DNA of 52,567 nt from Planctomycetota bacterium (lineage in GTDB: Bacteria > Planctomycetota > Phycisphaerae > UBA1845 > UTPLA1): the NCBI GenBank assembly GCA_016235815.1, contig JACRIM010000053.1, positions 1 through 52,567 on the forward strand. The letters run 5' to 3'. Shown here piece by piece: positions 36,518-51,470 of this stretch. The translations under genes and the position numbers were made by a program. The notes beneath the pieces were generated by a model that was not told where the DNA came from, did not search any database, and saw only the letters and a program-made list of their open reading frames with translations. How positions within the stretch are numbered: position 1 is the first letter of the stretch; the number at the start of each line of letters is the position of its first letter.

Positions 36518-36522
36518 GTCGA
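36518..36522. repeat. Target-site duplication, left copy (GTCGA)
   Basis: GTCGA directly precedes the left terminal repeat. The same five bases directly follow the right terminal repeat at 51,488-51,492. Five base pairs is the duplication length of Mu-type transposition. Confidence 0.93.
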
Positions 36523-36546
36523 TGATGCGCGCCGGAATAAACTGGA
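36523..36546 (+). repeat. Left terminal inverted repeat
   Basis: 24 bp beginning TGATGCGCGCC and ending AAACTGGA. It matches the inverse of 51,464-51,487 at 19 of 24 positions. A second ATAGCTGGACTG motif follows at about 36,556-36,567 and is probably an inner transposase site. Confidence 0.92.
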
Positions 36547-36652
36547 ATCGTGTACAAAATAGCTGGACTGAAAAACGTGCCAGCAAAACAAGCCGGTGCA
36601 ATCGTGCCCGGCTGAAAAACCCCCTCGAATTGTCTTCGCCCCCACTTCGAAC

Positions 36653-37162
36653 CTAGTTCGATGCTCCCCCGTGGACGCCCTGTCGTGCGTCCTGTTGACC
36701 GTTACCGCCTTGCACGGATCGCTTTGAGCTTCGAGCCAGAACGGCCTTCAGAAGCTCTATGACCTCCATTGCGTCAACGGTCGATGCGATCCGCGTCATC
36801 GGCCGTCCGTCGCCGAAGTGGCGCTCTGAGAGCCACCCGTCAAGCCCTTGCGGCGTCCAGTCCAGTTCGATGCGGAGCGACTCAATCTTTCGACGCTGGG
36901 CCAGAGTCGCCAGGCGATAGACACCCTTCGGTCGGCGCTGGCCGCGCGGCGCTGGACGTGGATGCTCATACTCGCCGCCGGCGTTCAATCGCTTCAGCAA
37001 TGCCGACGCCTCATCGTGCGACATGGCCGAGATCGAACCGGACGGAGTGAGCGCCCGTAAGTCGTCGATGCTCATGCCTCGCGACTTCGCCCAGGCGAAG
37101 AGCGCCCGGCGCTGGCCAGGCGAGATCGGCTCGGCTGGGGAGTATGCCGGTTGCGCACTCAT
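36653..37162 (-). CDS. GemA-like phage protein (Mu gp16 family)
   Basis: 169 residues from the ATG at 37162 (GGAG five bases upstream). Two helical halves are visible: SPGQRRALFAWAKSRGMSIDDLRAL with SHDEASALLKRLNAGG, and ATLAQRRKIESLRIELDW with TPQGLDGWLSERHFG and DAMEVIELLKAVLAR. This two-part pattern is that of GemA/gp16 (DUF1018), an early regulatory protein of Mu-like phages. Its start overlaps the stop of the sigma factor gene (ATGA), so the two are coupled. It is the last gene of the leftward operon, 107 bp from the left terminal repeat. Confidence 0.75.
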   Translation of the reverse strand: MSAQPAYSPAEPISPGQRRALFAWAKSRGMSIDDLRALTPSGSISAMSHDEASALLKRLNAGGEYEHPRPAPRGQRRPKGVYRLATLAQRRKIESLRIELDWTPQGLDGWLSERHFGDGRPMTRIASTVDAMEVIELLKAVLARSSKRSVQGGNGQQDARQGVHGGASN

Positions 37163-37842
37163 GCCGACTCCCGTAAGCGATTCTGTTCGCAATACTCACG
37201 AAGCGGCCGCGAGTTACGAAGCGCCGCCAACCCGTCATTTTGTATTTGGCGAACTCGCTCTTTGTTCAAATCGAGCGTGCGGCCCACGTCTTCCAGAGTG
37301 CGCGCCTTTACTCCGCCCAGTCCGAATCGCTGGACAATGACATACCGGGTTCGCTCGGGCAAAATGGACAGGTCGATTTCGGGCAAGTTCAATGCAATGG
37401 CTGAGACGGATTCCGTCGCGGCCGCGCCTCGTTCAATCTGTAATTCAAATTCCTTCCCGCACACGCCTTCGAAGTGTCGCCGTTCGATAGCTCTCAACCG
37501 ACGAATGATTGCGGTCGATGCGTAGGTACTGAATTGGTAGCCTCGACCCGGATCGAACAGTTCAGCCGCGCGCGTAAGTGTGATGATCGCTTCCTGATTC
37601 AAATCCTCGAAGTCCAGTCCCGAGCGGCGAGCCACTTTCCCCGCCCACACTCCCGCCAAGCCGAGATTCTCTTCGACCATGCGATTTCGCCGACGCACCA
37701 ATAGTCGGCCGCGCTTATCCACGAGCGATGGATTCCACTTTGGAACGTGGACCGCCGGTCGCGTGGTTTTCGATTGCGCGTGTCGGCGTTTGGCCTTGGC
37801 ATCGGCCTTGCGCTGGGTTCGTTTGCTGGTGGTAGTGGCCAT
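37159..37842 (-). CDS. Element-encoded sigma-70 family factor
   Basis: 227 residues from the ATG at 37842. A basic N-terminal tail (KRTQRKADAKAKRRH) is followed by region 2 (LDFEDLNQEAIITLTRAAELF and GRGYQFSTYASTAIIRRLRAI) and region 4 (RTLEDVGRTLDLNKERVRQIQNDGLAALR), the helix-turn-helix that reads the -35 box. Regions 1.1 and 3 are reduced. It would redirect host RNA polymerase to the element's own or a helper's promoters, a role played in Mu by Mor and C. It precedes and is coupled to the GemA-like gene. Confidence 0.9.
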   Translation of the reverse strand: MATTTSKRTQRKADAKAKRRHAQSKTTRPAVHVPKWNPSLVDKRGRLLVRRRNRMVEENLGLAGVWAGKVARRSGLDFEDLNQEAIITLTRAAELFDPGRGYQFSTYASTAIIRRLRAIERRHFEGVCGKEFELQIERGAAATESVSAIALNLPEIDLSILPERTRYVIVQRFGLGGVKARTLEDVGRTLDLNKERVRQIQNDGLAALRNSRPLREYCEQNRLRESA

Positions 37843-37872: not shown

Positions 37873-38322
37873 CTACAGCGACTTGGACTCCATACTGTTC
37901 GTCCGCTCGAAGCCCGCCGCGATCAATTCGCCATCGACCCACGAGCGCCGCGATGTCGCGATTCGTCGCAATTCCTCGCTTGAATCGAACTCGCGGGCGG
38001 CGTTCGCAATGATCGACGCGCGAGTCGTTCCATTGACGACTTGGCGAACCGACGCCGCCTCCAATTCGGCCTCATTGAGTAGCGGAAGCCCGGCGTTCCG
38101 GAGCTCGCCGTTCACCCACGCCGCGCGGTTCGCGACGATCTTTCGAGCCATCGGCTCGCTGTCGTACTCCGCCCCGGCTTTGGTAATAACCGCCTGGCGG
38201 TCCGATGTTGAATTCATAACCGTTGCTCCAATTGGCCCGGCCCGATTCGCCGTTGTCCTCGCGGACACGGGGATCGGGATCAGCGGGCCATGCACCAACA
38301 CAAAGTCTTTGCGATTCTTCAT
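37873..38322 (-). CDS. Small protein with two ~38-residue repeats
   Basis: 149 residues from the ATG at 38322 (GAAGG six bases upstream); an internal ATG at 38217 with GGAG eight bases upstream is also good. Two copies of one unit are visible: AGAEYDSEPMARKIVANRAA then WVNGELRNAGL, and AAREFDSSEELRRIATSRRS then WVDGELIAAGF. The shared core is (Y/F)DS...(R/K)IxxxRxxWVxGELxxAG(L/F). I do not recognise the family. It lies between the coiled-coil protein and the sigma factor. Confidence 0.7.
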   Translation of the reverse strand: MKNRKDFVLVHGPLIPIPVSARTTANRAGPIGATVMNSTSDRQAVITKAGAEYDSEPMARKIVANRAAWVNGELRNAGLPLLNEAELEAASVRQVVNGTTRASIIANAAREFDSSEELRRIATSRRSWVDGELIAAGFERTNSMESKSL

Positions 38323-38387: not shown

Positions 38388-39143
38388 TTACTTGTTTCCG
38401 ATGATCGCGCGAATACGCTCAGTGAGCACCTTGATTTCGATCTCAATCGGTTCGGCCGTCTCCTTGAGATCGGCGAGCTTCTTTTTCGCCGCGGCGAGAC
38501 TGTCCTTGTGAAGGTGGGCGTCACTAGGCCCGGCAGAGATCGTCCGCTCAATTCCAGTCACTTCACTGAGAGCGTTTGCAGTGGCACCGGGGCCTGCCCC
38601 CATCTCGTGAAGACGCATATGCAGCGCCTTTTTCTTCCGAATCATTTCCATCGCTTCAGCGGCCTTGGCGGGCAAAACTCCGTCCGACGCCCAGGTCAAT
38701 TGGCGAATGATTTCTTCGCGTGCGACCACGAATCCGGACCGCTTGCGCTCGATCTCGGCGAGCGCGTCTTTGTGACGGCGCTCCTCAGCTTCGGTTTCAG
38801 AGGCTAGAAGCCGATGTCCTTCAGATTGTGCGGCCGTCGCCTTTTCGAGACGCCCGCGCAGGTCGGCAATGAACGCCGATTTCTCGACTTCGAATTGAGC
38901 GGAGTAAGCGGCGCGGAGTCGATCGAGTCGCTCCTGGCTCTCGGTCAGCCGCGCCTTCACCGTCGCCGCTCGCGAGGCAGACTCCGCGTAGCTCGATTCG
39001 TCGGCCGCAGCCGCAGCCGTCGCGTCAGCCTCAGCCTGGTCATGCTCGCTTGTCAGCGCCGCGACCTCAGTTTCGGCCGCTTTGATTCGCTCGGCCAACG
39101 TGGCCGCGTCCGACTTCCCGGTTAGCTTTTTCAATAATGACAT
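38388..39143 (-). CDS. Coiled-coil protein downstream of the tape measure gene
   Basis: 251 residues from the ATG at 39143 (AGGAG eight bases upstream). Residues ~14-200 are almost entirely helical, with heptad-like Ala/Leu/Glu/Arg content (LAERIKAAETEVAALTSEHD, VKARLTESQERLDRLRAAYS). A second helix pair is at the C-terminus (EPIEIEIKVLTERIRAIIG). There is no recognised family. Position after the tape measure gene could fit a tail-associated or scaffold-like role, which is inference only. Confidence 0.72.
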   Translation of the reverse strand: MSLLKKLTGKSDAATLAERIKAAETEVAALTSEHDQAEADATAAAAADESSYAESASRAATVKARLTESQERLDRLRAAYSAQFEVEKSAFIADLRGRLEKATAAQSEGHRLLASETEAEERRHKDALAEIERKRSGFVVAREEIIRQLTWASDGVLPAKAAEAMEMIRKKKALHMRLHEMGAGPGATANALSEVTGIERTISAGPSDAHLHKDSLAAAKKKLADLKETAEPIEIEIKVLTERIRAIIGNK

Positions 39144-39207: not shown

Positions 39208-41523
39208 TTACCCACGGGCAATCGCATTAAGTTTGGCGTTCTCTCCACTGAGCACGCCCGTCAATCCGTGAATCGATTCGATCACACTCTTACTGATTCC
39301 CATGAGCTCGCTCGCTCGTCGGTCCATGCTTTTCAGCGAGTCCATCGCCTGGCGAATAAGCGGTTCCATCGCCGTACCCTTTTCGATCATGCCGATCCCG
39401 CGCCGCTGATTCCCACGAATCCCCTCGCGATCCATGTCGCGGACTCCGTCACGGGTTAAGCGCCCCTGTTCATCGCTGAGTCGCATGAATCTCTGAAATT
39501 CGCTTTCATACGATTCACCATAAGTGCGTGTCGCGCGATCCTGCGATGACCGGCGAACGGCCCGCACGCGATCGCGCAAAACGGATCGTTGTCGCATCGG
39601 ATGCGATGGGCTAAACGGCTCGACTTCCGACCGCTCGCGCTGCAAGTAGTCCTCGAATTTATTCAGATACTCGCTCAGCGTTTGGCCGTCTTTGAGGCGA
39701 TAATTCTCCAAGCCGAATCCGCCCTTTTCCGTGCCCGATATTCTGGCATCGCGGTCAAGCGTCTCGATGTCGTGCATGGTTTGGCGGATCAAGGCGTCCT
39801 GATCGTCCTTCCCCATGTATCCACCCATGAAGCCCTCGCGGTAGTTCGCACGCAATCGCGCGACGTTTTTGGCTATTTGCGCCGGGAGCGTTTCGACGCT
39901 GTTGCGTGCCTGCCGCTTTCGACGGGCGGCCTTCTCCGCGTCAGAAAGCGCAGGGGCACCCTTGCGCGTTCGCGTCGTTTGCTCGCGTTCCTTCGTGACT
40001 CGCGCGGCCGCGTCGCCTGGGTTCGGACGCGATGGTCCTAACTCACGCGGCTGCAACTCCGGCGGCAAAGGCAGATCGTCGATTTTTAATGGATCGCGCC
40101 CACCTAGTTTGCCTAGCCCATCGATCCCGCCGAGCGGACCTTGAACACCGTTTCGCTTGGCATCGTTCTCCGCAAGGCGGCGATTGGTTTCCTCTTCGCG
40201 ATACTGCGCGACGAGCTTGTCACGCTCGGAGTATGGAACCCTCTCCCCCTTCGCACGTCTCGCGCGGATTTCATCGTCGGCACGCTTTGCAGCGCCCCGG
40301 CGAATTGCGAAGTTGGTATCCCCCGTGATGATCTTCCGTTCGCGGTCAAGGTCGGCGGATTGTTTCTTCGACAAGCCTCCCGCCTGATTTGCAGCGCCCG
40401 GCCCGCCGCCGCCCGGCTTCGCCCCCTGGCCATTGATCGCGCGTTGCTGATCGGCGTGGAGCTTCATCGTCGCGCTGGCGTCGCGCGTCCGGCTGAAATC
40501 CATGCCCGCCTGAATCTTCGTAATTCCCGCTTCGGTAATGCCGAGCATGTCCGCGAGCTTCGGCGCTGCCGCGCGGAAGTTTGTCATCATGGAGGATACA
40601 AGGCTGCGCGCAAGCACTTCGCCAAAGTCAAGCGCGAAGCCTTTGAGAACATTCAGCGAGTCCACCACCGCGAGCGAAAAATCACCACCGCTGCCAAGGA
40701 AATCCGCGAGGCTTCGCGCGAAGCCGGCCGCGCCCGCAACCGCGTCCGAGAGGGCCTTGGTCCCTGCGACTGCTTGCAAGATTCGGTCGCTCGCATCACC
40801 GACGGCGTTTTTCAATCCCTGCCACTGAAAGTAGACGTCTCGTGTGTTTATGTTCAACTTGCCCGACTGCGCGGTCATTTCGTCAAGTGCTTGCCGAATG
40901 ATCTCCGCCTTTTGAGCGGCCGGTCCGAGCGCATCGAACGCGCCGATTCCCTTGAGTTGATCGAATCGCCGCTTCACGCCGTCGATGCCATCGACAAGGA
41001 TTCCGAAGTCGTCCAGGAAGAGCGTGCTCCCTCGCGACAATCCCGTGATGACGGTAGAGATCGCCTCACTCGCATTCTTACCCGTCGCCACCGCCTTTTT
41101 GCTTATGAAGTCGATGGCCGTGCCGACTTGTTCAAGGTTCATCCCAGCGCCGATCGCACGGTTGGCAATCTGCATGGCCTCGGCGAGTCGAAGTGTGCCC
41201 GATGATGCATCGACGAGCCTTCGAGCCAGCGCCTGCGCCCCGCCCGCGCTTTGCCCGGTCAACGATTGAAAAGCCTTGCTTTGGACTCCAAGGGCTGTAC
41301 CGCGATCGACGAGCGCGTCGATCCCACGCACCAGGGGCGCAAGACCCTGATTGATGTCGCGTAGGAAGCCAAGCCCTCCGCTCGCGAGTTTGAATGGAAT
41401 CGTGATCGGCTTGATCGCAGTGCGGGCAAGGCTTTGGATCCCCGAAATCGCCGACTGGAACGCGGACCGTGAGTTATCACGGGCCGTGATGTTCATACTG
41501 AGATTCAGATTGCCAGCGCTCAT
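39208..41523 (-). CDS. Phage tail tape measure protein
   Basis: 771 residues from the ATG at 41523, with GAGAG just upstream and 7 bp after the stop of the frameshifted chaperone product. The N-terminal part has the tape-measure wording: MNITARDNSRSAFQSAISGI, ALGVQSKAFQSLTGQ, VATGKNASEAISTVITGLSR then GSTLFLDDFGILVD, and a hydrophobic stretch (ALSDAVAGAAGFARSLADFLGSG). The C-terminal half is charged and helical. Tape measure proteins set tail length and travel with the DNA during ejection. At about 1.5 angstrom per residue this would specify a tail near 115 nm, if it works as usual. No other tail structural gene is recognisable in the element. Confidence 0.85.
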   Translation of the reverse strand: MSAGNLNLSMNITARDNSRSAFQSAISGIQSLARTAIKPITIPFKLASGGLGFLRDINQGLAPLVRGIDALVDRGTALGVQSKAFQSLTGQSAGGAQALARRLVDASSGTLRLAEAMQIANRAIGAGMNLEQVGTAIDFISKKAVATGKNASEAISTVITGLSRGSTLFLDDFGILVDGIDGVKRRFDQLKGIGAFDALGPAAQKAEIIRQALDEMTAQSGKLNINTRDVYFQWQGLKNAVGDASDRILQAVAGTKALSDAVAGAAGFARSLADFLGSGGDFSLAVVDSLNVLKGFALDFGEVLARSLVSSMMTNFRAAAPKLADMLGITEAGITKIQAGMDFSRTRDASATMKLHADQQRAINGQGAKPGGGGPGAANQAGGLSKKQSADLDRERKIITGDTNFAIRRGAAKRADDEIRARRAKGERVPYSERDKLVAQYREEETNRRLAENDAKRNGVQGPLGGIDGLGKLGGRDPLKIDDLPLPPELQPRELGPSRPNPGDAAARVTKEREQTTRTRKGAPALSDAEKAARRKRQARNSVETLPAQIAKNVARLRANYREGFMGGYMGKDDQDALIRQTMHDIETLDRDARISGTEKGGFGLENYRLKDGQTLSEYLNKFEDYLQRERSEVEPFSPSHPMRQRSVLRDRVRAVRRSSQDRATRTYGESYESEFQRFMRLSDEQGRLTRDGVRDMDREGIRGNQRRGIGMIEKGTAMEPLIRQAMDSLKSMDRRASELMGISKSVIESIHGLTGVLSGENAKLNAIARG

Positions 41524-41530
41524 GATTCTC

Positions 41531-42141
41531 TCAGTCCTTGCCCCTGTCGCCGACAAAATACGGATCGCGGCGATTGATCCCTTTAACGATCTGATCCTCA
41601 GCGAACGCGGGCAAGTCTCTCAGATCGCATTCAAACGACATACCGATCCACTCTGCCATGTGGCAGTAATGCATCATTGGTTGGATGACGGCTCGCCAGA
41701 CGGCGACGCGACCGGCTTCATAAAAAAAGGATCGATGTCTCCGAGAAGCTTCTCGACTTCCTTTTCGTCGGTCACCAAGTCCTGAACCAACCCTCGCAGA
41801 TTTCGAAGGTGGATTCCGTTCATCGCAACTTGAATGAGCAGGATTCGAACTTGTTCGATAAAGGGCAAACGGCCGATGACCCTGTCGAAATTGCTGCGAT
41901 CGGTTTGACCGTCCGGCTTTTGGAATTCGATCAGGATAGGCGCCCCGTCCATGTCGTAAACGCCATCCCACGCGAGGATGTAGGACCACCATTCGGCCAT
42001 CGCCGCACCAAGTCCGCGATTGAAACAGTCAATTGCGGCGGCGCGCTCGATGGCAGTAAGCCAGCGGTGAAAGAGCTTGAATTCTTCGTCGCCGACTTTG
42101 ACCACGATGGGCGGCGCTTTGGCTTTCAGATCGAACTTCAC
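41531..42141 (-). CDS. Tail assembly chaperone GT product, by -1 frameshift
   Basis: Predicted 203-residue fusion. Translation follows the chaperone G frame to Phe140, slips back one base on T TTT TTT (41,728-41,722), and continues with YEAGRVAVWRAVIQPMMHYC to the stop at 41,531-41,533. The extra 63 residues look like genuine protein (MAEWIGMSFECDLRDLPAFA), and the two frames exchange coding character at the slip site. A G/GT pair made by -1 frameshift immediately before the tape measure gene is a conserved trait of long-tailed phages. The GT tail usually recruits tail tube protein to the tape measure. Confidence 0.8.
41674..42141 (-). CDS. Tail assembly chaperone G-like protein
   Basis: 155 residues. 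KFDLKAKAPPIVVKVGDEEFKLFHRWLTAIERA is the usual beta-then-helix opening of tail assembly chaperones, and the C-terminal helix (RNLRGLVQDLVTDEKEVEKLL) precedes DIDPFFMK at the slip site. The zero-frame product ends 15 residues after the slippery T7. Such proteins coat the tape measure during tail assembly and are absent from the virion. Start at ATG 42141, 45 bp after the MutS-I gene. Confidence 0.8.
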   Translation of the reverse strand: MKFDLKAKAPPIVVKVGDEEFKLFHRWLTAIERAAAIDCFNRGLGAAMAEWWSYILAWDGVYDMDGAPILIEFQKPDGQTDRSNFDRVIGRLPFIEQVRILLIQVAMNGIHLRNLRGLVQDLVTDEKEVEKLLGDIDPFFMKPVASPSGEPSSNQ

Positions 42142-42186: not shown

Positions 42187-43017
42187 TCATGCACCCGGCA
42201 GCAAGCGACCGGCATCGTCATCGACGCGGACGAGTCGCAGTCCGCCGTGTTCGTTTTCGATTTCAACCTCATTCGAGTCGGCGGCGATTTCCCCGGCGAG
42301 CTTCGCCGCGTGTCGCTCCAAACTCTCAAACATCGCGCGCTTTAGATCGCGAGGAATCGACGAGAGAATCGTCGCCATCCGCTCCACGTCATCCCGCTCC
42401 GCAAGGTCGGGTTCCGAGTGAAACGGGAATTTCCCGCGCCGCTTAATCCATCGCACAATCAAGTGACTGCCGGTCCGGCGATGCGCTGGGCCGACTTCCA
42501 TAAGCGCCTGGCACACGCCGCGAAGCGGATCGGGAAGCTCCGCGATGATCCTCAGGAGCTCAGCATCACGATTGACCGGAGCGGGCCTCGGGCGCTTATT
42601 GAGTACAATCGCCCTGGGCGGCTCCGATCCTTCGCAATCCGGCTCGCCGACTTCGTTCGCGACGCACACGCCATACCCGGCCTGGACGAGCTTCGCTACG
42701 GCCGCGTCGACAAGGGACGCGGGCACTCGGACGAGTTGCACGATCGCCCCTTCACAAACCCAATAAGACAGGTCAAGCGCCAACGCGCGGGCGATGACCT
42801 CGGCGTCATCGCCGTGCGCCTCAAAATGCTGGCCGCTCTGAATGAGCACAAGCGACGCCCCGGCCGCGAGCTTGAATTCAAGCCAGTCGATCCTTCGGGC
42901 ACTCGGAAGCCTCTGCGGATCGGGCCAAACCGTGCCATCGGCGGCGCGTTCAATGATCGCGTCCAGGCTTGGCGGCCGGGCCGTTGTATGAATGGGAAGC
43001 GTGGTCAACGCGGACAC
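42187..43017 (-). CDS. Orphan MutS domain-I protein
   Basis: 276 residues. Residues ~44-127 follow the mismatch-recognition domain I of MutS: LEFKLAAGASLVLIQSGQHF, EAHGDDAEVIARALALDLS, IVQLVRVPASLVDAAVAKLV and QAGYGVCVANEVGEP line up with the E. coli landmarks [39 protein letters not shown] and ESVAICEQIGDP. The wedge motif Phe-x-Glu becomes His64-Phe65-Glu66, so Glu is kept and the intercalating Phe is replaced. No ATPase, clamp or lever domain follows. The C-terminal 130 residues (ELLRIIAELPDPLRGVCQAL, MATILSSIPRDLKRAMFESL) are helical and unknown. A DNA-structure sensor is possible. Confidence 0.7.
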   Translation of the reverse strand: MSALTTLPIHTTARPPSLDAIIERAADGTVWPDPQRLPSARRIDWLEFKLAAGASLVLIQSGQHFEAHGDDAEVIARALALDLSYWVCEGAIVQLVRVPASLVDAAVAKLVQAGYGVCVANEVGEPDCEGSEPPRAIVLNKRPRPAPVNRDAELLRIIAELPDPLRGVCQALMEVGPAHRRTGSHLIVRWIKRRGKFPFHSEPDLAERDDVERMATILSSIPRDLKRAMFESLERHAAKLAGEIAADSNEVEIENEHGGLRLVRVDDDAGRLLPGA

Positions 43018-43586
43018 GTCGAAAACCCCTTTCGGAATACCGTCGGCGCTCTCAGCGCCCTCAGCTCACCGGACACGTCGCGTAGTGACGCGAAGCCGCT
43101 TGGGGAGAGCACCATCGCGGCCGCGCGGATTAGCTCAAAAAAGCCCGGCGCGGCGTGTGGATAATCCGCCGCGCCAGGACCGGCCAAAGGAGTATCTCGG
43201 CCCGACGATGGCTGCGTTGCCGAACCGAGTCGGTGCGATTCTCGAAGCGTGGAAGCTTCGCGAGCGCGCGTAAAACCTGAGTCGCACTTCAGCATCGCCG
43301 CAAGTCCGCCCTCGCGAGACCGCAGGCTTTCCACAAACAGCGATGACACGCGCGACCAGGGGGAAAAGCCAAAAAGTGGCGATCCGCCATTTACGGACCG
43401 CCACCAGGAGAGCGTCGGCAGAAATTGCAAACCGCCGACGCAACCGGGTAGTTCTGCAAAACGACCCGGATCAGAGCGAGCAAGAAGCGGCGAGCCGCCA
43501 CCATCAGCGGCCCGCCGCGAGGAGATTCCGACGCGGATGGAATTAACCGCATCGGAGCTATGGGCGTTTTCAATCTTCACGTTCAT
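43005..43586 (-). CDS. Doubtful ORF with internal DNA repeat
   Basis: Up to 193 residues, fitting neatly between its neighbours (23 bp after the 121-residue gene, 13-bp overlap with the MutS-I gene) with AAGG nine bases before the ATG. The sequence is odd: Ser/Arg/Gly-rich, with two related segments, RRAADGGGSPLL and WWRSVNGGSPLF, arising from a ~45-bp DNA repeat near 43,375-43,420 and 43,485-43,530. All three frames are partly open here. It may be a real fast-evolving gene or a non-coding structured region. Confidence 0.3.
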   Translation of the reverse strand: MNVKIENAHSSDAVNSIRVGISSRRAADGGGSPLLARSDPGRFAELPGCVGGLQFLPTLSWWRSVNGGSPLFGFSPWSRVSSLFVESLRSREGGLAAMLKCDSGFTRAREASTLRESHRLGSATQPSSGRDTPLAGPGAADYPHAAPGFFELIRAAAMVLSPSGFASLRDVSGELRALRAPTVFRKGFSTCPR

Positions 43587-43609
43587 CGATTCAACCTTTG
43601 TCCCGCGAT

Positions 43610-43975
43610 CTATGCCTTTTCTGCCGTGCCAGTGAGATCGACTACGAGAATCCCATTTTCAATCCGCGTGCAACGCCGACCCTTGCATTCGTCGGGATGA
43701 ACACCGGCAGCGCGAATCGCCCGGTCCAGCGTGAGCCGCACGGCTCGCGTTCCCTTTGACGGCTTCGATACCTTGATGCGGTGCCTGCCTTGCTCGGGTT
43801 TGCATATCCCGATCATGCCTTTGGCGCTATCAAACACGACGCTCGCGTAGTCACTCACACCAACGGCGGCGAGCTCGTCAGGATCGAACCGACAAACCCC
43901 GCGCGGGCCGACCGTGCAAGTCCCGCCATGTAGGCGGAGCCCGGCGCAATCGTTTGTCAGGAACTTCCAAGCCAT
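43610..43975 (-). CDS. Hypothetical protein following the MuB-like gene
   Basis: 121 residues from the ATG at 43975 (GGGAG seven bases upstream), 2 bp after the MuB-like stop, so it belongs to the same transcript. Beta-rich N-terminus (LRLHGGTCTVGPRGVCRFDP) and a SAKGMIGI...KVSKPSKGTRAVRLTLDRAI segment. No family recognised. Four cysteines are spread out and do not form a clear metal site. Confidence 0.75.
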   Translation of the reverse strand: MAWKFLTNDCAGLRLHGGTCTVGPRGVCRFDPDELAAVGVSDYASVVFDSAKGMIGICKPEQGRHRIKVSKPSKGTRAVRLTLDRAIRAAGVHPDECKGRRCTRIENGILVVDLTGTAEKA

Positions 43976-43977
43976 AC

Positions 43978-45249
43978 TTACGCTCCCGTCGCCATGCGCC
44001 GCGGTGCCGCTTGTCGCATCTCGCGATGCGTGTTCCACTGTGCATCGATTCGGCCGAGCATGGCCGGCACTTCAACGCCGGTGGAAAGCAAGCTCAGCCG
44101 TGTCGCGTCGCGAACGGATTCCACCGTCACGACGTTCCGGCCGCTTCGTATCGCCGCGCGGTAGGCTTTCTGCCAAACACCATGCGTCGTGCGCAACATT
44201 CCAAGCCCGATGACGCACGCCAGGGCTTGCAGATATTCGGCCGCGTCCGACGCGAGCCGCACTTCGTTTGAATGGAAAATCGCCCGTATCTCTTCGATGC
44301 TGAAAAACGGCCGCGTCACACCGCCGCGCCCGTCGATGCCGCGAAGCAAGTCCAATTGCATCCCGACACGCGAAGCGAATTGATCGTACAAAAGATTGCC
44401 AACGCCGACGCGGACGCTCGTGAGTTTTTCAGAGACTTCCGTCGTGCCGAGCAACAGGATCGGAATGCCGCACACGTCGGCGAGATCGCGCACGAGCTCG
44501 CACGCCGAATGCTTCATGCGGTGGGCCTCATCGATAATCAGCAATCGACCGCTTCCCGTCATCCGCCGCTTGATTGCTTCGAGATTCAAAAACGTCGAAG
44601 AGCGCGGCCGCTCGCCAAGCTCGGCGAGAATCAAGTGTGACAGATACCGCGACGATCCCGCTCCCTCCTGGACGCGCACAAGGATCGACGTGGGATCGTC
44701 GCCATGAAGGGCCAGCGCCCCGGCGCTCTTCCCGCAACCGCCCGGCCCGTATCCCAGGGCGATACTCTGCCGAGCGTGTTCGCGAGCCACGCCGCGCGGC
44801 GATACGCCGGTCCGCGCGTTGCTCTTCGCGAACCTCGCGAGCGCCATGATCGTCGTGAAGACGACGTTCGCATAGAAGCCGAGCGGTCGGCCCTCTCGTC
44901 GGCGTTGCTCGTCGGTTTCGATCCACTGATTGAGTTTGCGAATGATGTCGGAGTCATCGGCACGATACTTGCCGGAAAGCACTTCGCTCACCGTGCTCGC
45001 ACCGTGCCCGATGGCCAGCGCAATCTCGGGATGACTGACCTTGTTTTGTTTGGCGTGCTCATTCGCCAAAGCCCGCACCTTGGCGCGAAGCTCAGGCGTC
45101 AGCCCGTCCTTGGGTAGCTTGATTGATTTCATCAGCTCTCGGGCCTCCATGCCCAATTGCTCGGCCACGTCGTTGCGCTCATGCGCATCGTGCGGGCCTT
45201 CCAGAACGTTCCAATTAGGGGCGTCGCTTTGATCCGGTTCGCGTTCCAT
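43978..45249 (-). CDS. MuB-type AAA+ transposition activator
   Basis: 423 residues. A helix-turn-helix near residues 60-105 (NKVSHPEIALAIGHGASTVS) precedes an AAA+ domain with Walker A GPGGCGKS (168-175), Walker B LLIIDEAH (236-243) and a sensor-1 like PILLLGTTEVSEKL. In Mu, MuB binds DNA as an ATP-dependent filament, chooses target DNA, delivers it to MuA and gives target immunity. The last 120 residues have no obvious match. It lies 8 bp after the transposase gene, as in Mu. Confidence 0.88.
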   Translation of the reverse strand: MEREPDQSDAPNWNVLEGPHDAHERNDVAEQLGMEARELMKSIKLPKDGLTPELRAKVRALANEHAKQNKVSHPEIALAIGHGASTVSEVLSGKYRADDSDIIRKLNQWIETDEQRRREGRPLGFYANVVFTTIMALARFAKSNARTGVSPRGVAREHARQSIALGYGPGGCGKSAGALALHGDDPTSILVRVQEGAGSSRYLSHLILAELGERPRSSTFLNLEAIKRRMTGSGRLLIIDEAHRMKHSACELVRDLADVCGIPILLLGTTEVSEKLTSVRVGVGNLLYDQFASRVGMQLDLLRGIDGRGGVTRPFFSIEEIRAIFHSNEVRLASDAAEYLQALACVIGLGMLRTTHGVWQKAYRAAIRSGRNVVTVESVRDATRLSLLSTGVEVPAMLGRIDAQWNTHREMRQAAPRRMATGA

Positions 45250-45257
45250 GATTCGAC

Positions 45258-47276
45258 CTAGATAAAGTCCTCAACGCTCATCCCTGAATACATGGGCGCA
45301 TCGTCCCTGAGGCGCTCATCGTCTAATACGTCCAACACGGAAAGCGGCTCATCGTCGGTGCCCGTTCGATGGGCCTTCGATACCACGTCGGACGGCGCTT
45401 TCCCGGCCGTCGCGATGGCATCCTCCATTGCCGGTCTGACGCGCAATTGCGACGGCGGAATAACCGGCTCGGGCGCTTCGCCGCGCGACGCGCGAATCCC
45501 TGCGAGTCGAAGCGTCAGCAATTGCTCGGGCGTCGTCGTCGCCAGTGCGGCCTTTGCCTTGCGCACGTCCTCGCGATACGGCGTCAGCAACTTGCGCCGC
45601 TCGCGATGTTGCTCTTTGACCTGTTGCAACGTGAGCCCGCGAATCGACAGGCATTCGATTTTGAACAACGGTTCCCGATCCAAGCCGCACACCATCGCCC
45701 GGCTTGCATCGTCCGGCTGAATCGCCAGCAATACCGATTGTCCCTGCATGGCGACGAGCCGCGCGTCGCCGTTGCCATACCACCGGCCGTCCAGGCGAAC
45801 ACCGTCACGGCGCACGAGGCGCGGGCCGATGAATTCGCAAAACAGATGTTCGAGCACCGTCTCGGATTCGAGCCTGATCGGCTCGGCGCGGAAAGCGTCC
45901 ATCGCTTCCAGCGGCGTCTTGCCGAAGAGATCGACGGCGCTGTGTGGCGTTTCGTGATAAACGTCAATCCACTTGGCAAGTGCCGATTCGACAGAGTCCA
46001 GTGTCGGGAGTTTTTCGAGATTGGCTTTGATGTATCGCGCCCGATCCTCATGGCGCTCACTCGGGCATCCGCCCCAAAACGTGTCAAAGAGCTTGTCGAA
46101 AGAATCTTTGAAACCACCAAAAAACGATTCAATGGGTTTCGCGTAGGGCGTGTACGGCGCGACGCGGCGAACCTCAATCCCGAGATCGTCCAGAATTCCG
46201 CCGATGCGAGCGCCGTCGAAGTCGCGATACTCGCCATGTCGCGCCGCCTTGCGGTAATCCTCGCCCCAGTCTGTGCGAAGGATGCGAGGCTTTCCGTAGG
46301 TTCCGAACGCGCGCTTCAACGCCCCTAGAATCGTTTGGCTATTCGCGTGCGCGGCGAGCACCCACCCAACGATGACACGCGATCGCATGTCCATCCAAAC
46401 GGTCCATTTCAATCGGACCGCCCGCCATCCGCGCGCCGTCAGGATGCGGCACCAAATATCCAGCGTCCGCTCGTCGCCGACGTATTCATCCCCGGCCGCG
46501 ATGGATTCAAAGTCTCGCTGCATTTTGGGAATACATTCGGCCTTTGCGGATCGCGGGCCGCTGTTCGCAAGTCGGCGGGTAATGGCGGGAAGCAATGGCC
46601 GCAACTCACAGCGCACGATCGAATATGAAGGCACGGCCCATGCCGGATCGCCGCGATGCTCGCGAGCGGCTTCCCCTTTCACAATCTCCATTGCAGCCTT
46701 GGTCGACAAGTCGCGTGCGAGAATCAGGTTTTTTATTGCATTCAGCGCCTCGGCTCCGACATGAACGCTCTGCCCCCGGCCGCGCTTGGTGTATTGTGGA
46801 ATCAGTGCGACGATTCCGTCGTCACGATACGCCTTACCCCATGCGTAAAGCGTCGAACGCGAAAACGATCCGCCGACCGCCTTGGCGAGCGATTCATCAC
46901 TCAGTACGGACGCGGCGAATCGCTCGAAGGCGACGCTCGCGTTCGGTTGTTTCGGGAACTCACCCCAACGTTGCCAGCATTGCTTGCGGGCCTTCGCCTC
47001 TTCGATATCCTCGCAGCGCGTTCCGTCTGTCACCGCCTGAGCGAGCCCTTCCAAGTCACGGCGATTCAACGCCGAAGTAGTTTGGAATCGCGAGTCCGCC
47101 GCAATACGAATTCGCCATTCGCCATTGACAAAGCGGGCAAGCCCACGCGGTCTAAATTCCGTTCGACACCGCCCCTGCATGCGCCGCTTTCTGACGCCAG
47201 TGAGCGCGCACGCTTCGGCGACGGAGATTTCGTCAGCCAGGAGCGGAGAAGAATGTGTCACGGCAACGGCATTCAC
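45258..47276 (-). CDS. MuA-type DDE transposase
   Basis: 672 residues. The N-terminal part has winged-helix/HTH end-binding segments (ISVAEACALTGVRKRRMQGR, SFSRSTLYAWGKAYRDDG). The RNase H-like core carries Asp268 (YVGDERTLDIW), Asp336 (ILRTDWGEDY) and Glu383 (YAKPIESFF). A beta-barrel like Mu transposase C-terminal region follows (LVRRDGVRLDGRWYGNGDAR), then a basic helical stretch. It cuts and joins element ends to target DNA, which fits the 5-bp duplication seen here. It overlaps the upstream gene by ATGA and is followed by the MuB-type gene. Confidence 0.93.
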   Translation of the reverse strand: MNAVAVTHSSPLLADEISVAEACALTGVRKRRMQGRCRTEFRPRGLARFVNGEWRIRIAADSRFQTTSALNRRDLEGLAQAVTDGTRCEDIEEAKARKQCWQRWGEFPKQPNASVAFERFAASVLSDESLAKAVGGSFSRSTLYAWGKAYRDDGIVALIPQYTKRGRGQSVHVGAEALNAIKNLILARDLSTKAAMEIVKGEAAREHRGDPAWAVPSYSIVRCELRPLLPAITRRLANSGPRSAKAECIPKMQRDFESIAAGDEYVGDERTLDIWCRILTARGWRAVRLKWTVWMDMRSRVIVGWVLAAHANSQTILGALKRAFGTYGKPRILRTDWGEDYRKAARHGEYRDFDGARIGGILDDLGIEVRRVAPYTPYAKPIESFFGGFKDSFDKLFDTFWGGCPSERHEDRARYIKANLEKLPTLDSVESALAKWIDVYHETPHSAVDLFGKTPLEAMDAFRAEPIRLESETVLEHLFCEFIGPRLVRRDGVRLDGRWYGNGDARLVAMQGQSVLLAIQPDDASRAMVCGLDREPLFKIECLSIRGLTLQQVKEQHRERRKLLTPYREDVRKAKAALATTTPEQLLTLRLAGIRASRGEAPEPVIPPSQLRVRPAMEDAIATAGKAPSDVVSKAHRTGTDDEPLSVLDVLDDERLRDDAPMYSGMSVEDFI

Positions 47277-47698
47277 GATGCGGCCTCCGACGCAGCCCCA
47301 TCGGCATTGGGCGAGAGTCCGGAAGCCAGCGCCGCCATACGCGCCGTAACACGTTGCACGCTCTTCCCCGTGAGAATCATCGACAGGCCCATAAGGAACG
47401 CCTGCGCCGTTAGATCAATCCAATCCCCTCGCACACGGCCGCGCCCCCGCCGAATCAAGACGCCGCGCTTTTTGCGACGCGCGGAGACGTAGCGCCCGAC
47501 GGTATTCGACATCATCGGGAATCCAGATTGTGACAACTTCGCGGTGATTTCGGTTGCCGAAAGAAGCGTTTCGTCGGCAAGTCGATGTAGCTCGGCCCGC
47601 CCATCTGCCGGAAGCGTTTGGGGTGTGTACTCGGCCTTCGGTCGACGCCCGCGCCGTGCTTTCACCGTTGCAGGAGTTGTCTTTTTTTGTTTTGCCAT
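47273..47698 (-). CDS. Small DNA-binding protein upstream of the transposase
   Basis: 141 residues. A very basic N-terminus (KARRGRRPK) is followed by LPADGRAELHRLADETLLSA, TEITAKLSQSG and SNTVGRYVSARRKKRG, which looks like a helix-turn-helix and weakly resembles DUF3486-type Mu-like phage proteins. A hydrophobic helix (LTAQAFLMGLSMILTG) follows. Its stop overlaps the transposase ATG. GGGGCAAAGCT lies before the start, and a strong hairpin sits 27 bp upstream. Confidence 0.7.
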   Translation of the reverse strand: MAKQKKTTPATVKARRGRRPKAEYTPQTLPADGRAELHRLADETLLSATEITAKLSQSGFPMMSNTVGRYVSARRKKRGVLIRRGRGRVRGDWIDLTAQAFLMGLSMILTGKSVQRVTARMAALASGLSPNADGAASEAAS

Positions 47699-47952: not shown

Positions 47953-48189
47953 TCACGCCGCCGTCGAAGCGGCGGGTTCATTTTCCGATTTCACAAGTTC
48001 GACGAGTTCGGCTCCCAGCGCCTTGGCGATTGCACGAGCCACGCGAACGCCGACCGGCCGACCGGCGAAGGCGTTGACGATGCTCTGCGTGGATATCCCG
48101 GCCTTTCTGCCGAGCTCACCACGGAGAAGACCCGCAAGCGCGGTTCGCCGCGATAGCACGGTCGGGTTGAAAATCAGTGCGTCGGACAT
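47953..48189 (-). CDS. Ner-like helix-turn-helix regulator
   Basis: 78 residues from the ATG at 48189. The segment LAGLLRGELGRKAGISTQSI followed by VNAFAGRPVGVRVARAIAKALG is an XRE-type helix-turn-helix, and the short length and place as first leftward gene match Ner of Mu-like phages, which damps early transcription. It faces the XRE repressor gene across the divergent control region; one AGCCAAACCCT motif overlaps its ribosome site. Confidence 0.82.
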   Translation of the reverse strand: MSDALIFNPTVLSRRTALAGLLRGELGRKAGISTQSIVNAFAGRPVGVRVARAIAKALGAELVELVKSENEPAASTAA

Positions 48190-48333: not shown

Positions 48334-49623
48334 ATGCGACGGAAGCGGACAGTATTGAGTAGGGGGGAAAGGGTCCGCGAATTGAGGAAAAAACGCGGGA
48401 TTACACAGGGCCAACTTGCCAAGGAATGTGGGGTTCACCTGAGTTTTATTAGCGCCGTCGAGCGCGGAGAATCCGCCCCTGGCAGAGACGTCTTATTCCG
48501 AATAGCGACAACTCTTAGCGTATCTCCGCAGTTTATTGAGTCCGGCGAGCTTGGCGATGACGATCGCGCGCGAATTGCTCGTTTTGAATTGTGGCCTGAG
48601 CTCGTGTACCTCGTTGCGAATCAATTCATCGTTCCAAGACGATTGCCACTGGCCAAGGTCATTCCCGATCAACCGCAGATACAAGAAGCCGTTCGCGTCG
48701 CATGGCAATCGCGTCACTTTTGCGAGTATTGGTCGTGGGCAACCTCTCGTGACGGGCGCAAAGTCGCAGACGGTCTTGCTGGGCACGGAGCGATAGAATC
48801 GCTGATTGACGGTGCGATTCAATCAGGCATTTCTCAGTCTGGAAATACGGGATGGATTGAACTAGCAAATAGAACTTTGGCCGCTCCGACAACCGAAAAA
48901 AACACCCATTCATCTGCGGTCGGATATCATATCCCCTATCAGCCAAGCCGGTGTTTTGAATTCGACATCGAAACCTGTGCGAACCTTCGCAATGCAATCC
49001 CGGCCTTCCTACACCGCGCCGGGAAATACGCAAGCAACATACTGAGCCGCTCGTTCATTGAAAAAGCATTCCCGTCGTTTTTCTGGTCGGCGTCTCGACT
49101 TTGGGGAGATAGACGCATGGCCGGTTGGATTTGGTATTTGAACATGCCATTCGACCTGTTTGGTCCGCTCGCCAGGCTTGCACGATCCTACGACGACGTT
49201 GAAAAGTTTAAGGCGGCCGGTTCGCGTTTACTCGACCAATCGACTATCGAAGATCGAGACGTGTTTCTCGGCTTATTTGACGATGTGATTGCCGAGCCTG
49301 GTCGTTACAACGCTGAGTTTGGAGAGCACCCCTTGAATTGTGGCAACATCATGGGCATGGGTCCGAGCGTCGGCGGATTCTGGCCGGTTGATGAGAGACG
49401 ATTAAACCGTACTTCACGGTCCGACTCACAGCGCCTTGAATTCATTCATAAACTAGGAAGCCCCCGAGATCGGAGCGAGTTGTCGGAGTTTCTGAAAGCC
49501 AAAGCCGACGCGATTGCACCGCATAGCATTGATGAAGACGGGAATCTTTGGGACATTAAGCCCGGAGAGCAACGTCCCGAACACCCCCGCTTCAACGAAT
49601 CACCGCCTGAGGCGCTTCCATGA
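48334..49623 (+). CDS. XRE-family repressor with large unknown C-terminal region
   Basis: 429 residues from the ATG at 48334; a TTG at 48355 with GGAAG upstream is the alternative. The N-terminal 70 residues are an XRE helix-turn-helix (RVRELRKKRGITQGQLAKEC, VHLSFISAVERGESAPGRDV). The remaining ~340 residues are not a peptidase S24 domain or any family I know; they include a hydrophobic helix (IWYLNMPFDLFGPLARL) and conserved-looking FWPVDERR. By place it is the element's repressor. It is about twice the length of Mu c. It overlaps the next gene by ATGA. Confidence 0.8.
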   Translation: MRRKRTVLSRGERVRELRKKRGITQGQLAKECGVHLSFISAVERGESAPGRDVLFRIATTLSVSPQFIESGELGDDDRARIARFELWPELVYLVANQFIVPRRLPLAKVIPDQPQIQEAVRVAWQSRHFCEYWSWATSRDGRKVADGLAGHGAIESLIDGAIQSGISQSGNTGWIELANRTLAAPTTEKNTHSSAVGYHIPYQPSRCFEFDIETCANLRNAIPAFLHRAGKYASNILSRSFIEKAFPSFFWSASRLWGDRRMAGWIWYLNMPFDLFGPLARLARSYDDVEKFKAAGSRLLDQSTIEDRDVFLGLFDDVIAEPGRYNAEFGEHPLNCGNIMGMGPSVGGFWPVDERRLNRTSRSDSQRLEFIHKLGSPRDRSELSEFLKAKADAIAPHSIDEDGNLWDIKPGEQRPEHPRFNESPPEALP

Positions 49624-49982
49624 GTGAGCCACGGCCATACCCCGCAACCCGAACTATCGTCGTGGTTTTACAGGTAATTGGGGCGATTGTGGCGGTCCTT
49701 TCCGGCATCGTTGCTGGCTTCATGGTCCAGCCGCTCATAGCTCCGAATTGTTCGCCTGGACAGGCAACGGGACTGAGCTTCGGCGTCGGTGCCATCGTCG
49801 CGGCGCTCATACTCTTACCGTTCCAGTTTTTTGCGGAAGCCCTCGCAATCGGCCGCGATATCGCGGTCAACGTCGCCAAGCTCGCCGAACGCAAGGAACC
49901 GCCCGCTCGTCCTCCAGCGCCGCACGACCCGGAAACCGAAGCGGCCCTTCACCGCTTGACGCAATCCGCAAAGGTCGATTGA
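49620..49982 (+). CDS. Two-helix membrane protein
   Basis: 120 residues, coupled by ATGA to the repressor gene. Two membrane helices (TIVVVLQVIGAIVAVLSGIV, LSFGVGAIVAALILLPFQFF) are followed by a cytoplasmic tail (EALAIGRDIAVNVAKLAERK). No family recognised. Co-expression with the repressor suggests a function active in the dormant state, such as exclusion, but this is inference. Confidence 0.75.
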   Translation: MSEPRPYPATRTIVVVLQVIGAIVAVLSGIVAGFMVQPLIAPNCSPGQATGLSFGVGAIVAALILLPFQFFAEALAIGRDIAVNVAKLAERKEPPARPPAPHDPETEAALHRLTQSAKVD

Positions 49983-50078
49983 CCGGGCAGCCGGTTTCGA
50001 TGCGACTTTCGCCCATGCCCACCTCTACTATTCCATCGACCCGGATCGGAGTAAACCGACCCTCGAAGGGAATAGCCG

Positions 50079-50423
50079 ATGCCCCTTGCAATCACAATTG
50101 AATTGGTGGGCGATGCTGCCCGACTCTCACAGAGAGAGAGCACCACGCCCAACTCAAAAACGCACGTCGTCGTCATCCCCCCGGCGAGCGCGGCAGCGGT
50201 GAAAGCATGGTTCGTTACCCCGGCCGCGTCCACCACGGTTTCCGATGTAGCGCTCGAATGCCTGGACTGCGGCGTCCGCGTCATGCAGACGGTCTATATC
50301 GATGGCCGCTGCGAAAAACGTCCGATCATTCTGACGCCCGCGCAGTTCACAACGATCAAGGCATGGATGGCCCTTTGGGGAACTACGACGGCCCCCGAGA
50401 GCCCGCTCGTCGTCAATCCGTAG
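50079..50423 (+). CDS. Hypothetical protein, element rightward operon
   Basis: 114 residues, GGG six to eight bases before the ATG. Beta-strand content is likely (HVVVIPPASAAAVKAWFVTP, RPIILTPAQFTTIKAWMALW): the two segments share (V/I)IxP(A)..xxxKAW and may be an internal duplication. A CLDCG pair lies between them. Not recognised. Confidence 0.65.
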   Translation: MPLAITIELVGDAARLSQRESTTPNSKTHVVVIPPASAAAVKAWFVTPAASTTVSDVALECLDCGVRVMQTVYIDGRCEKRPIILTPAQFTTIKAWMALWGTTTAPESPLVVNP

Positions 50424-50458
50424 CGAGCGAATCGGTACGCGCAAAGAGAGTAGGCAAC

Positions 50459-50629
50459 ATGATCGAAATCGAAAAGACGGAAGACGGCGACGTGAAGCTC
50501 CGCGAAACCGTCGAAGGCAAGTTCAACGAAGTGACCGTAACGCCCCAGCACCTTGATATCGTCGCCGACGCATTCGGGCGAATGGTCAAACCCGACAGCC
50601 CGGCCAGCAAGATTCAGGTTGGAAACTGA
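50459..50629 (+). CDS. Small acidic protein, element rightward operon
   Basis: 56 residues from the ATG at 50459, with AGAGAG upstream. Pattern MIEIEKTEDGDVKLRETVEG then VTVTPQHLDIVADAFGRMVK. No family recognised. It lies between two unknown genes of the same direction. Confidence 0.6.
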   Translation: MIEIEKTEDGDVKLRETVEGKFNEVTVTPQHLDIVADAFGRMVKPDSPASKIQVGN

Positions 50630-50638
50630 CGCGCAGCG

Positions 50639-51136
50639 ATGAACCAAGCAACCGCGACAACCGACACAGACGCCCGCCCGATCCGGCTTCGTAAGGCACG
50701 CGGTCCAGGTGGAGTGAACTACGACTTCGGCCGGTTTATCGAACACGGCGAAGAGCTCGAAGCGCCGGTAGAGCTCGCCGCCCGTTGCATCATGGGCCAT
50801 GAGTTTGAGCTCATGGACGAAGCCGACCGCCCGCGTGTCGACGCCGCCCTCCGCGTGTTGACCGGCGACGCTCCAACGGCCGATGCGACGCCAACAGGTC
50901 AAAGCGACGCGCCGCCCCTGGCCGATCCCGACGCGATCACCCAGGTAGAAGCGCCGACCGGCGAGACAGCCGCCGACGCGATCCCGGACGAGCCGCTCTC
51001 TATCAGTAATGATGATGCGCCGTCGCCGACCGCCCCGGCCGATGACACCCCGGCCGAGTCCAACGATCCCGACGATTCCACTGATCCGAGCGAACCGCAA
51101 CCCCTCGACCCATCGGAGCGCCACTCGACCCGATGA
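50639..51136 (+). CDS. Protein with acidic disordered tail, element rightward operon
   Basis: 165 residues. The first ~75 (RPIRLRKARGPGGVNYDFGR, ELAARCIMGHEFELMDEADR) look folded; the rest is a low-complexity Asp/Ala/Pro/Thr tail (SNDDAPSPTAPADDTPAESN) that is probably disordered and strongly acidic. Not recognised. An acidic DNA-mimic or interaction role is conceivable but not shown. Confidence 0.65.
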   Translation: MNQATATTDTDARPIRLRKARGPGGVNYDFGRFIEHGEELEAPVELAARCIMGHEFELMDEADRPRVDAALRVLTGDAPTADATPTGQSDAPPLADPDAITQVEAPTGETAADAIPDEPLSISNDDAPSPTAPADDTPAESNDPDDSTDPSEPQPLDPSERHSTR

Positions 51137-51251: not shown

Positions 51252-51470
51252 TTTTGGACGATTTGACCCACTTCGGACAAAAACTGAGTGCGCAATGCGC
51301 TGCGCTTTGGACAATCCGAACCGCGTTTTTAGAGCGCCATGCGGGTTAGGGGGGAGAAAATTGTCCGAAACCGCCCTTTTGTCCAGCTTTTTCTACAAAT
51401 GCGTTCTAGCGTCTAACTGACGCTCCCGCCTAGACTTACGCAAAATCGCCCTTTTTTTTATTGTCCAGTT
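51252..51470. repeat. Cluster of TGGACAA-type sites in the right end of the element
   Basis: Six copies of (T/C)(T/G)GGAC(A/G)A: plus strand at 51252 (TTTTGGACGATTT), 51271 (CTTCGGACAAAAA) and 51305 (CTTTGGACAATCC); minus strand at 51360-51370 (TTTCGGACAAT), 51379-51388 (GCTGGACAAA) and 51460-51470 (AACTGGACAAT). The last merges with the terminal repeat, and related motifs follow the left terminus. They are probably transposase-binding sites, as in Mu and Tn7 ends. 51,137-51,463 otherwise holds no gene I trust. Confidence 0.65.

What the first reader, a model, noticed from the sequence alone, without database searches (positions are those of the whole stretch)
36653..37842. Element carries its own sigma factor, coupled to a GemA-like protein
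The last two genes of the leftward operon are a compact sigma-70 factor with regions 2 and 4 and a GemA-like protein, joined by an ATGA overlap. Mu uses Mor and C activators for middle and late transcription; a sigma factor would be a different solution. With so few late genes of its own, the factor may act on helper or host promoters.
Basis: inference. Interest (0 to 1): 0.62.

Follow-up and report, generated by a model that had tools for sequence, protein, structure and literature searches.

The report
Mu-like element with own sigma factor
A small Mu-like jumping element in an uncultured Phycisphaerae bacterium carries, beside its GemA gene where Mu and B3 carry the activator Mor, a gene for a compact sigma factor, which suggests (but does not prove) that it switches on genes by supplying a new RNA-polymerase subunit rather than an activator.

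Summary
Window 37159-37842 (-) encodes a 227-aa two-domain sigma-70 (Pfam region 2, 7.8e-11; region 4, 1.5e-12), joined by an ATGA overlap to GemA (at Pfam's cut-off). Both lie at one end of a 14,965-bp insertion: TG...CA ends 19/25 identical, 5-bp duplication GTCGA. The layout is B3-like; in Mu and B3 GemA's neighbour is Mor, here it is a sigma. Mor passes its cut-off in 0 of 15 MuA-bearing genomes, this one included. The sigma is no recent host copy (32-38% identity to five host sigmas), but it is a singleton: nothing at E<=1e-22 in 396 other class genomes, nothing beside 37 other MuA hits. Its promoters are unknown; a shared-motif test was negative. The element lacks terminase, portal and capsid genes; the host has, on another contig, a conserved tail-less Mu-like head cluster (its TerL is 47-64% identical in 30 of 40 related genomes). 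Best reading: a sigma in Mor's place, driving the element's own second unit. Action on helper or host promoters is possible but unsupported. New variant of a known kind.

The parts
37159..37842 (-). two-domain sigma-70 factor, 227 aa (regions 2 and 4, no region 3; K/R-rich N-terminus)
   Evidence: Pfam r2 7.8e-11, r4 1.5e-12; PHROG 351 sigma 4e-28; alignment; model confident over both domains
36653..37162 (-). GemA-like protein, 169 aa, start overlaps sigma stop by ATGA
   Evidence: Pfam GemA 27.0 bits at cut-off; BalMu-1 GemA E 6e-11; overlap printed
36523..36547 (.). left end of element (TG...), inverted repeat with right end, 19/25
51463..51487 (.). right end of element (...CA)
36518..36522 (.). 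target-site duplication GTCGA, left copy
51488..51492 (.). target-site duplication GTCGA, right copy
45258..47276 (-). MuA-like DDE transposase, 672 aa
   Evidence: PHROG 310 2.6e-75; Mu-transpos_C and rve
43978..45249 (-). MuB-like ATPase, 423 aa
   Evidence: PHROG 296 1.4e-35; AAA_22
47273..47698 (-). 141-aa protein upstream of MuA, function unknown
   Evidence: no Pfam or PHROG match; 4-nt overlap with MuA
47953..48189 (-). Cro/Ner-like HTH protein
   Evidence: HTH_3 2.6e-5; PHROG repressors
48334..49623 (+). divergent XRE-type regulator, probable repressor (role inferred)
   Evidence: HTH_3 3.1e-14
49620..51136 (+). short right arm: four small unknown genes; no head, packaging or lysis genes recognised
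43610..44038 (-). 142-aa unknown protein; last gene before the hairpins
43370..43610 (-). hairpin array with two terminator-like stems, between the MuA/MuB unit and the second unit
   Evidence: fold z -5.86, 0 of 200 shuffles as stable; stems of 14 and 13 pairs; no Rfam match; a 193-aa open frame over it has no family match
43137..43177 (-). third terminator-like hairpin (11 pairs) followed by six T
   Evidence: sequence, fold (81-nt stretch z only -1.2)
42187..43017 (-). protein with a MutS domain I; first gene of the second leftward unit
   Evidence: Pfam MutS_I 1e-9
41674..42141 (-). homologue of the gene before the tape measure in relatives (tail-chaperone position)
   Evidence: tblastn 7e-17 to G010, 5e-6 to G001; role inferred from position
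39208..41556 (-). tape-measure-like protein, 782 aa
   Evidence: PHROG 3779 3.4e-4; 45-47% over about 330 aa to two relatives
38388..39143 (-). unknown protein o286 (likely start 39143)
37873..38322 (-). unknown protein o149, 24 nt before the sigma frame

Best explanation
A 15-kb transposable element of the Mu/B3 family sits in a Phycisphaerae chromosome. Beside GemA at its end, where Mu and B3 encode the activator Mor, it encodes a compact sigma-70. Shown: the gene, its place inside the element, the overlap with GemA, no Mor above cut-off, and no recognisable head genes. Inferred: after derepression the sigma binds host core RNA polymerase through a conserved region 2.2-like surface, reads a near-standard -35 with its region 4.2, and reads a non-standard -10 because region 2.3/2.4 has lost the residues that primary sigmas use. 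It then starts the element's middle/late transcription, most simply its own second leftward unit (MutS_I protein, tail genes, sigma, GemA) beyond the hairpins, as a self-reinforcing switch. It works like Mor/C in role but by subunit exchange, as T4 gp55 and SPO1 gp28/gp34 do, not by activator recruitment.
For: Element ends and 5-bp duplication enclose the gene. Mu GemA 8233-8784 and Mor 8781-9170 overlap by 4 nt. B3 has Mor at the very end, then GemA, with MuB and MuA on the same strand and a divergent repressor arm: the window's layout. BalMu-1 GemA is directly followed by the late activator. Mor is over cut-off in 0 of 15 MuA-bearing genomes. The motif D-L-x-Q-E of region 2.2 is kept, E-R-V-R-Q-I of region 4.2 is kept, WW of region 2.3 is replaced by TA, region 3 is missing (residue roles recalled). 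The structure model is confident over both domains, and solved primary and RpoS sigmas are its best fold matches. The sigma frame has a coding-like codon-position G+C pattern. Literature: phage sigmas are essential for T4 late and SPO1 middle/late genes (PMC9429907, passages).
Against: It is a singleton: no relative at E<=1e-22 in 396 other class genomes nor at 1e-19 in 391 other phylum-sample genomes; the samples overlap and only up to 7 first-look candidates a genome were scored. None lies around 37 other MuA hits, many on short contigs. Sigma precedes GemA, whereas Mor follows it in Mu and B3. In relative G001 the ORF that overlaps GemA by 4 nt is an unrelated 107-aa ORF, so the slot need not hold a regulator. 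No promoter or shared motif was found. Terminator-like sites over the whole element are near chance (24 found, 18.1 sd 4.4 expected), so the two-unit reading rests on a few long stems. With few late genes there is little of its own to switch on. Leptospira transposable prophages lack Mor/C without a reported sigma (PMC8705779).
Confidence: 0.5

Rival explanations
1. The sigma is an auxiliary gene captured from planctomycete sigma stock that alters host transcription, like the sporulation-type phage sigmas, and does not run the element's own middle or late genes.
For: Host sigmas C32, C58 and C38a share its missing region 3 and non-aromatic region 2.3/2.4; one tree groups it beside them (0.92). 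Host-like phage sigmas can be dispensable for lytic growth (PMC9429907, passages). It is found in one element only.
Against: It overlaps GemA, a gene common to transposable phages, at the Mor position. Identity to host sigmas is only 32-38%.
Confidence: 0.22
2. The element is a defective prophage or deletion derivative; the sigma is a leftover of a larger phage's late switch and now has little function.
For: Related prophages have terminase, portal or capsid genes; the element has only the tape measure and the gene before it. Same-strand placement of tail genes with MuA differs from G010 and G001, so it was rearranged.
Against: The element's main frames are open and mostly closely spaced, and its ends match with a 5-bp duplication. 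From the layout of G010 or G001 a single deletion cannot put the tail genes on the MuA strand.
Confidence: 0.15
3. The element is a satellite; its sigma switches on structural genes at another locus, a helper phage's or the host's conserved Mu-like head cluster on contig C4.
For: 15-kb size and lack of head genes. C4 holds open frames for TerL, portal, a protease-like protein, decoration, Mu-gpT capsid and adaptor, conserved in relatives.
Against: No shared promoter-like dyad between element and C4 upstream DNA (24 of 60 shuffles as good). The cluster is present in genomes without a relative of this sigma, such as G001 and G002. No packaging data.
Confidence: 0.1
4. Assembly or annotation artefact: a host sigma gene spliced next to GemA in a draft contig.
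For: Draft assembly in 60 contigs; unique gene.
Against: The 4-nt overlap is continuous DNA, and the 5-bp duplication spans the whole element. No host sigma is close to it.
Confidence: 0.03

Closest known systems
Phage Mu and B3 GemA-Mor pair (middle/late activators Mor/C)
   Same: GemA overlaps a transcription-regulator gene by 4 nt in Mu; the pair lies at the element end, MuB and MuA on the same strand, divergent repressor arm in B3
   Different: Regulator is a sigma-70 subunit, not the Mor/C activator; gene order is sigma then GemA; no head genes
Phage-encoded sigma factors (T4 gp55, SPO1 gp28/gp34; phage sigmas in general)
   Same: Phage-borne sigma-70 thought to redirect host RNA polymerase; 86.6% of 4,350 phage genomes lack one, the rest carry one to three (PMC9429907, passages)
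   Different: Here in a Mu-family transposable element and overlapping GemA; best family E-values are to RpoS/RpoD-type models
Transposable prophages of Leptospira
   Same: B3-like arms, GemA near one end when present, no Mor/C (PMC8705779, passages and sections 12 and 14)
   Different: The word sigma occurs once in that text, about another phage; they keep head and tail genes
Planctomycete sigma factors without region 3 (host C32, C58, C38a)
   Same: Lack region 3, non-aromatic 2.3/2.4 segment, KERVRQI-type helix
   Different: Larger proteins (335-616 aa), chromosomal, 36-38% identical
Helper-dependent satellites (AH14b, 16.8 kb)
   Same: Similar size, no head or terminase genes (PMC4936722, abstract and passages)
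   Different: AH14b has an integrase and a primase and data for its packaging; this element is a DDE-transposon type with no packaging evidence

Membership tests
sigma-70 family | region 2 domain | tested here: met
   Pfam 42.0 bits, cut-off 24
sigma-70 family | region 4 domain | tested here: met
   Pfam 47.3 bits, cut-off 24.1
sigma-70 family | binds core RNA polymerase | not testable with these tools
   D-L-x-Q-E motif kept; role of the motif recalled
primary/RpoS-type sigma (groups 1-2) | region 3 and aromatic pair of region 2.3 | tested here: not met
   region 3 missing, WW replaced by TA
ECF sigma | only regions 2 and 4, and ECF-type sequence | tested here: inconclusive
   two-domain layout; generic TIGR02937 superfamily model 52.3 bits over 42.9, but RpoS/RpoD-type models have better E-values; 18% identity to one protein of G010 that I took by eye for an ECF sigma
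Mu/B3 transposable phages | MuA-type transposase and MuB ATPase | tested here: met
   PHROG 310 2.6e-75, PHROG 296 1.4e-35
Mu/B3 transposable phages | GemA | tested here: met
   27.0 bits at cut-off 27, so borderline; supported by relatives
Mu/B3 transposable phages | TG...CA ends with 5-bp target duplication | tested here: met
   19/25, GTCGA; next pair 15/25; chance-looking pairs of 16 and 17 in wider searches of two other loci
Mu/B3 transposable phages | Mor/C regulator | tested here: not met
   no match at E<=0.01 in the host genome, 0 of 15 genomes over cut-off
Mu/B3 transposable phages | terminase, portal, capsid genes (complete phage) | tested here: not met
   head genes of G010, G006 and G001 have no match in the window at E<=1e-3
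phage satellite | packaged by a helper's proteins | not testable with these tools
   no particle data; no helper prophage seen by TerL search

The most novel reading that the evidence does not exclude
A head-less Mu-family satellite that has exchanged Mor for its own sigma factor, and uses that sigma to wake a conserved, chromosomal, tail-less Mu-like head cluster (gene-transfer-agent-like) of its Phycisphaerae host, supplying transposition and tail-length functions itself.
Probability: 0.06. Interest if true: 0.9.

Novelty: new variant of a known kind. Interest (0 to 1): 0.5.

Why it matters
Mor/C has been treated as a marker of transposable phages, and its absence from Leptospira prophages was left open: truly absent or merely unrecognised (PMC8705779, passages). 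This element gives a concrete candidate for what can stand in Mor's place, a sigma subunit, and a testable pair of genes. It would make late control in the Mu family a case of regulator replacement. Together with the conserved head-only cluster in the same hosts it points to an unexplored phage/host relationship in Phycisphaerae.

Tried and rejected
Viral contigs: scans with the sigma and with a MuA alignment found no relative. Genome contigs: the MuA scan gave 6 loci, two of them Phycisphaerae; none has a match to this sigma.

Known-phage tblastn for the sigma found 26 records, none covering 80% of it in one place.

Shared promoter motif between the upstream regions of the second unit, the right arm and the C4 head cluster: no better than shuffles (24 of 60; 31 of 60 for two regions). 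Standard sigma-70 promoters: 3 found, 3.7 expected; terminator-like sites: 24 found, 18.1 expected.

Tail tube of a relative against the host genome: nothing, and the tool warns that an empty answer shows nothing.

End repeats alone are not beyond chance: shuffles reach 14-17 of 22 and another pair in the window scores 18. Only the joint test (TG, CA, 5-bp duplication, repeat) singles out one pair, 19 of 25 against 15 for the next. The same test over wider ranges in G005 and G001 gave unconvincing pairs of 16 and 17 of 25, so 19 is above the chance level but not far above it.

Tree: unresolved with the careful method; FastTree on the trimmed block gives 0.92 for grouping with region-3-less planctomycete sigmas; an IQ-TREE run on that block printed nothing. 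The flank searches do not list a protein in L017 that I took by eye for an ECF sigma, so ECF genes near MuA are not excluded.

Full report
What is there. The gene at 37159-37842 (-) encodes a sigma-70 factor with regions 2 and 4 and no region 3. Its stop overlaps the start of GemA (36653-37162) as ATGA. GemA passes Pfam only at the cut-off, 27.0 bits, but aligns with relatives' GemA and with BalMu-1 GemA. Identity to Mu GemA is 16%. ORF length alone would not be convincing (11 of 50 shuffles as long); the profile matches are.

Where it sits. A joint search for TG/CA ends, 5-bp duplication and inverted repeat gave one clear pair, 36523 and 51487, 19/25 identical, duplication GTCGA; the next pair in the window scores 15/25, and wider searches in G005 and G001 gave unconvincing pairs of 16 and 17. 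The element is 14,965 bp and the whole host contig is 52,567 bp. Genes: leftward a Cro-like protein, a 141-aa protein, MuA, MuB and a 142-aa protein; then hairpins with terminator features; then a MutS domain-I protein, a tail-chaperone-position protein, a tape-measure-like protein, two unknowns, sigma and GemA. Rightward an XRE regulator and four small unknowns. The host is taken to be a Phycisphaerae bacterium: two family relatives, G010 and G006, correspond to records so named (contigs of the same length).

Why the position matters. In Mu, GemA and Mor overlap by 4 nt. In B3, Mor is the first gene at the end, GemA the second, with MuB and MuA on the same strand. In BalMu-1 the late activator follows GemA directly; in FP_Mushu and RcapMu it comes a few genes later. 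The window has the B3 layout with a sigma in place of Mor and the pair reversed. Mor passed its cut-off in 0 of 15 MuA-bearing genomes (control: Bacillus subtilis rang); two sub-threshold matches lie in long ORFs that score as sigma factors. Leptospira transposable prophages also lack Mor/C (PMC8705779, passages and sections 12 and 14 read). In relative G001 the ORF that overlaps GemA by 4 nt is an unrelated 107-aa ORF, so the slot is not always a regulator.

How unusual. The sigma had no relative at E<=1e-22 in 396 other genomes of the class sample nor at 1e-19 in 391 others of the phylum sample; the samples overlap, and up to 7 first-look candidates a genome were scored. MuA was found at E<=1e-20 in 32 of 397 class genomes, 38 places including the window. 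Flanks of the other 37, many on short contigs, hold no relative of this sigma. An HMM built without it finds it at 7.9e-33 and, apart from two host sigmas put in as controls, nothing better than E 0.58 in 74 loci around MuA or GemA hits, 1.08 Mb. The HMM does not list a protein in L017 that I took by eye for an ECF sigma, so ECF genes are not excluded.

Origin. Identity over regions 2-4 is 41% to E. coli RpoS, 36% to RpoD, and 32-38% to the five host sigmas compared. Three of those five share its missing region 3 and its non-aromatic region 2.3/2.4. FastTree on the aligned block puts it beside them (0.92); the careful tree is unresolved and flags its long branch. So it is not a recent host copy; an old capture from planctomycete sigmas is plausible.

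Mechanism. Kept: D-L-x-Q-E in region 2.2 and E-R-V-R-Q-I in region 4.2. Lost: the WW pair of region 2.3 and the usual -10 contact residues (residue roles are recalled from sigma-70 work and come from no call). This predicts core binding, a near-standard -35 and a non-standard -10. Mor activates a promoter that has a -10 but no -35, by recruiting host polymerase (PMC4287176, passages); a sigma would instead replace the subunit. The structure model, from an alignment of five sequences, is confident over residues about 51-120 and 161-210 and not over the linker. The best fold matches are primary and RpoS sigmas; TM-scores are low, about 0.3, which I ascribe to the unsure domain arrangement. A target could not be shown: the motif test was negative, standard promoters were at chance level, and terminator-like sites as a whole were near chance. 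The long stems at 43137-43610 still suggest that the sigma-GemA unit has its own promoter, which is where I would look first.

Helper question. The element lacks terminase, portal and capsid genes: head genes of related prophages (G010, G006, G001) do not match the window at E<=1e-3, whereas tape measure, chaperone-position protein, MuA, MuB and GemA do. TerL searches of the host genome gave one convincing TerL, on C4, and two weak matches, 4.2e-4 and 7.1e-4. It lies in a run of open frames: TerL, portal, a protease-like protein (named by its match to G010 and by eye), decoration, gpT capsid, adaptor and a gp37-like protein. A TerL of this type occurs once, at 47-64% identity, in 30 of 40 other relatives; one search counts 32 of 41 with the own genome and with G038, whose only match (34%) lies near MuA. 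The seven other TerL matches, five of them on MuA-bearing contigs, are at 32-39%. Seven of ten fetched clusters keep all seven genes in order, with capsid identity 73-83%; in the other three only TerL and portal matched. This is a conserved head-only cluster, also in genomes without a relative of the sigma; nothing links the two except co-residence. A relative's tail tube had no match in the host genome.

Literature searches. No paper held 'transposable phage' with 'phage-encoded sigma factor' or with 'sigma factor' and 'Mor'. The titles and abstract starts listed by the other searches (one search showed 20 of 39) named no such case. The library is open-access only.

Verdict. Observation confirmed, interpretation partly supported, new variant of a known kind.

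Noticed in passing
G000:C4:115697-122790 (L121, L122); relatives L129, L131-L135, L138: Conserved tail-less Mu-like head cluster (TerL, portal, protease-like, decoration, gpT capsid, adaptor, gp37-like) in Phycisphaerae, within a few kb of a PTPS gene in seven of ten fetched loci (not in C4); looks domesticated, gene-transfer-agent-like.
   Followed up: partly
window 42187-43017 (-): Element protein with a lone MutS domain I (Pfam 1e-9), first gene of the second leftward unit; role unknown.
   Followed up: no
window 43137-43610 (-): Array of strong hairpins (z -5.86 over 43370-43610) between two gene units, no Rfam match.
   Followed up: partly
window 39208-42141 (-): Tape measure and the gene before it stand without recognised tube or baseplate genes, on the same strand as MuA, unlike G010 and G001.
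   Followed up: partly
L020:13582-14502 (-): Mom-family protein (Pfam 1.8e-46) about 2 kb from a GemA homologue in G010.
   Followed up: no
L013:7140-8261 (+): ABC-type ATPase with weak acetyltransferase (GNAT) matches in its C-terminal part, downstream of GemA in the G005 prophage.
   Followed up: no
L017, L018, L019: G010 carries several GemA-like copies (one with a stop) on short contigs where I recognised no complete phage.
   Followed up: no
L139, L142, L143: Three of five compared host sigma factors lack region 3 and the aromatic pair of region 2.3.
   Followed up: partly
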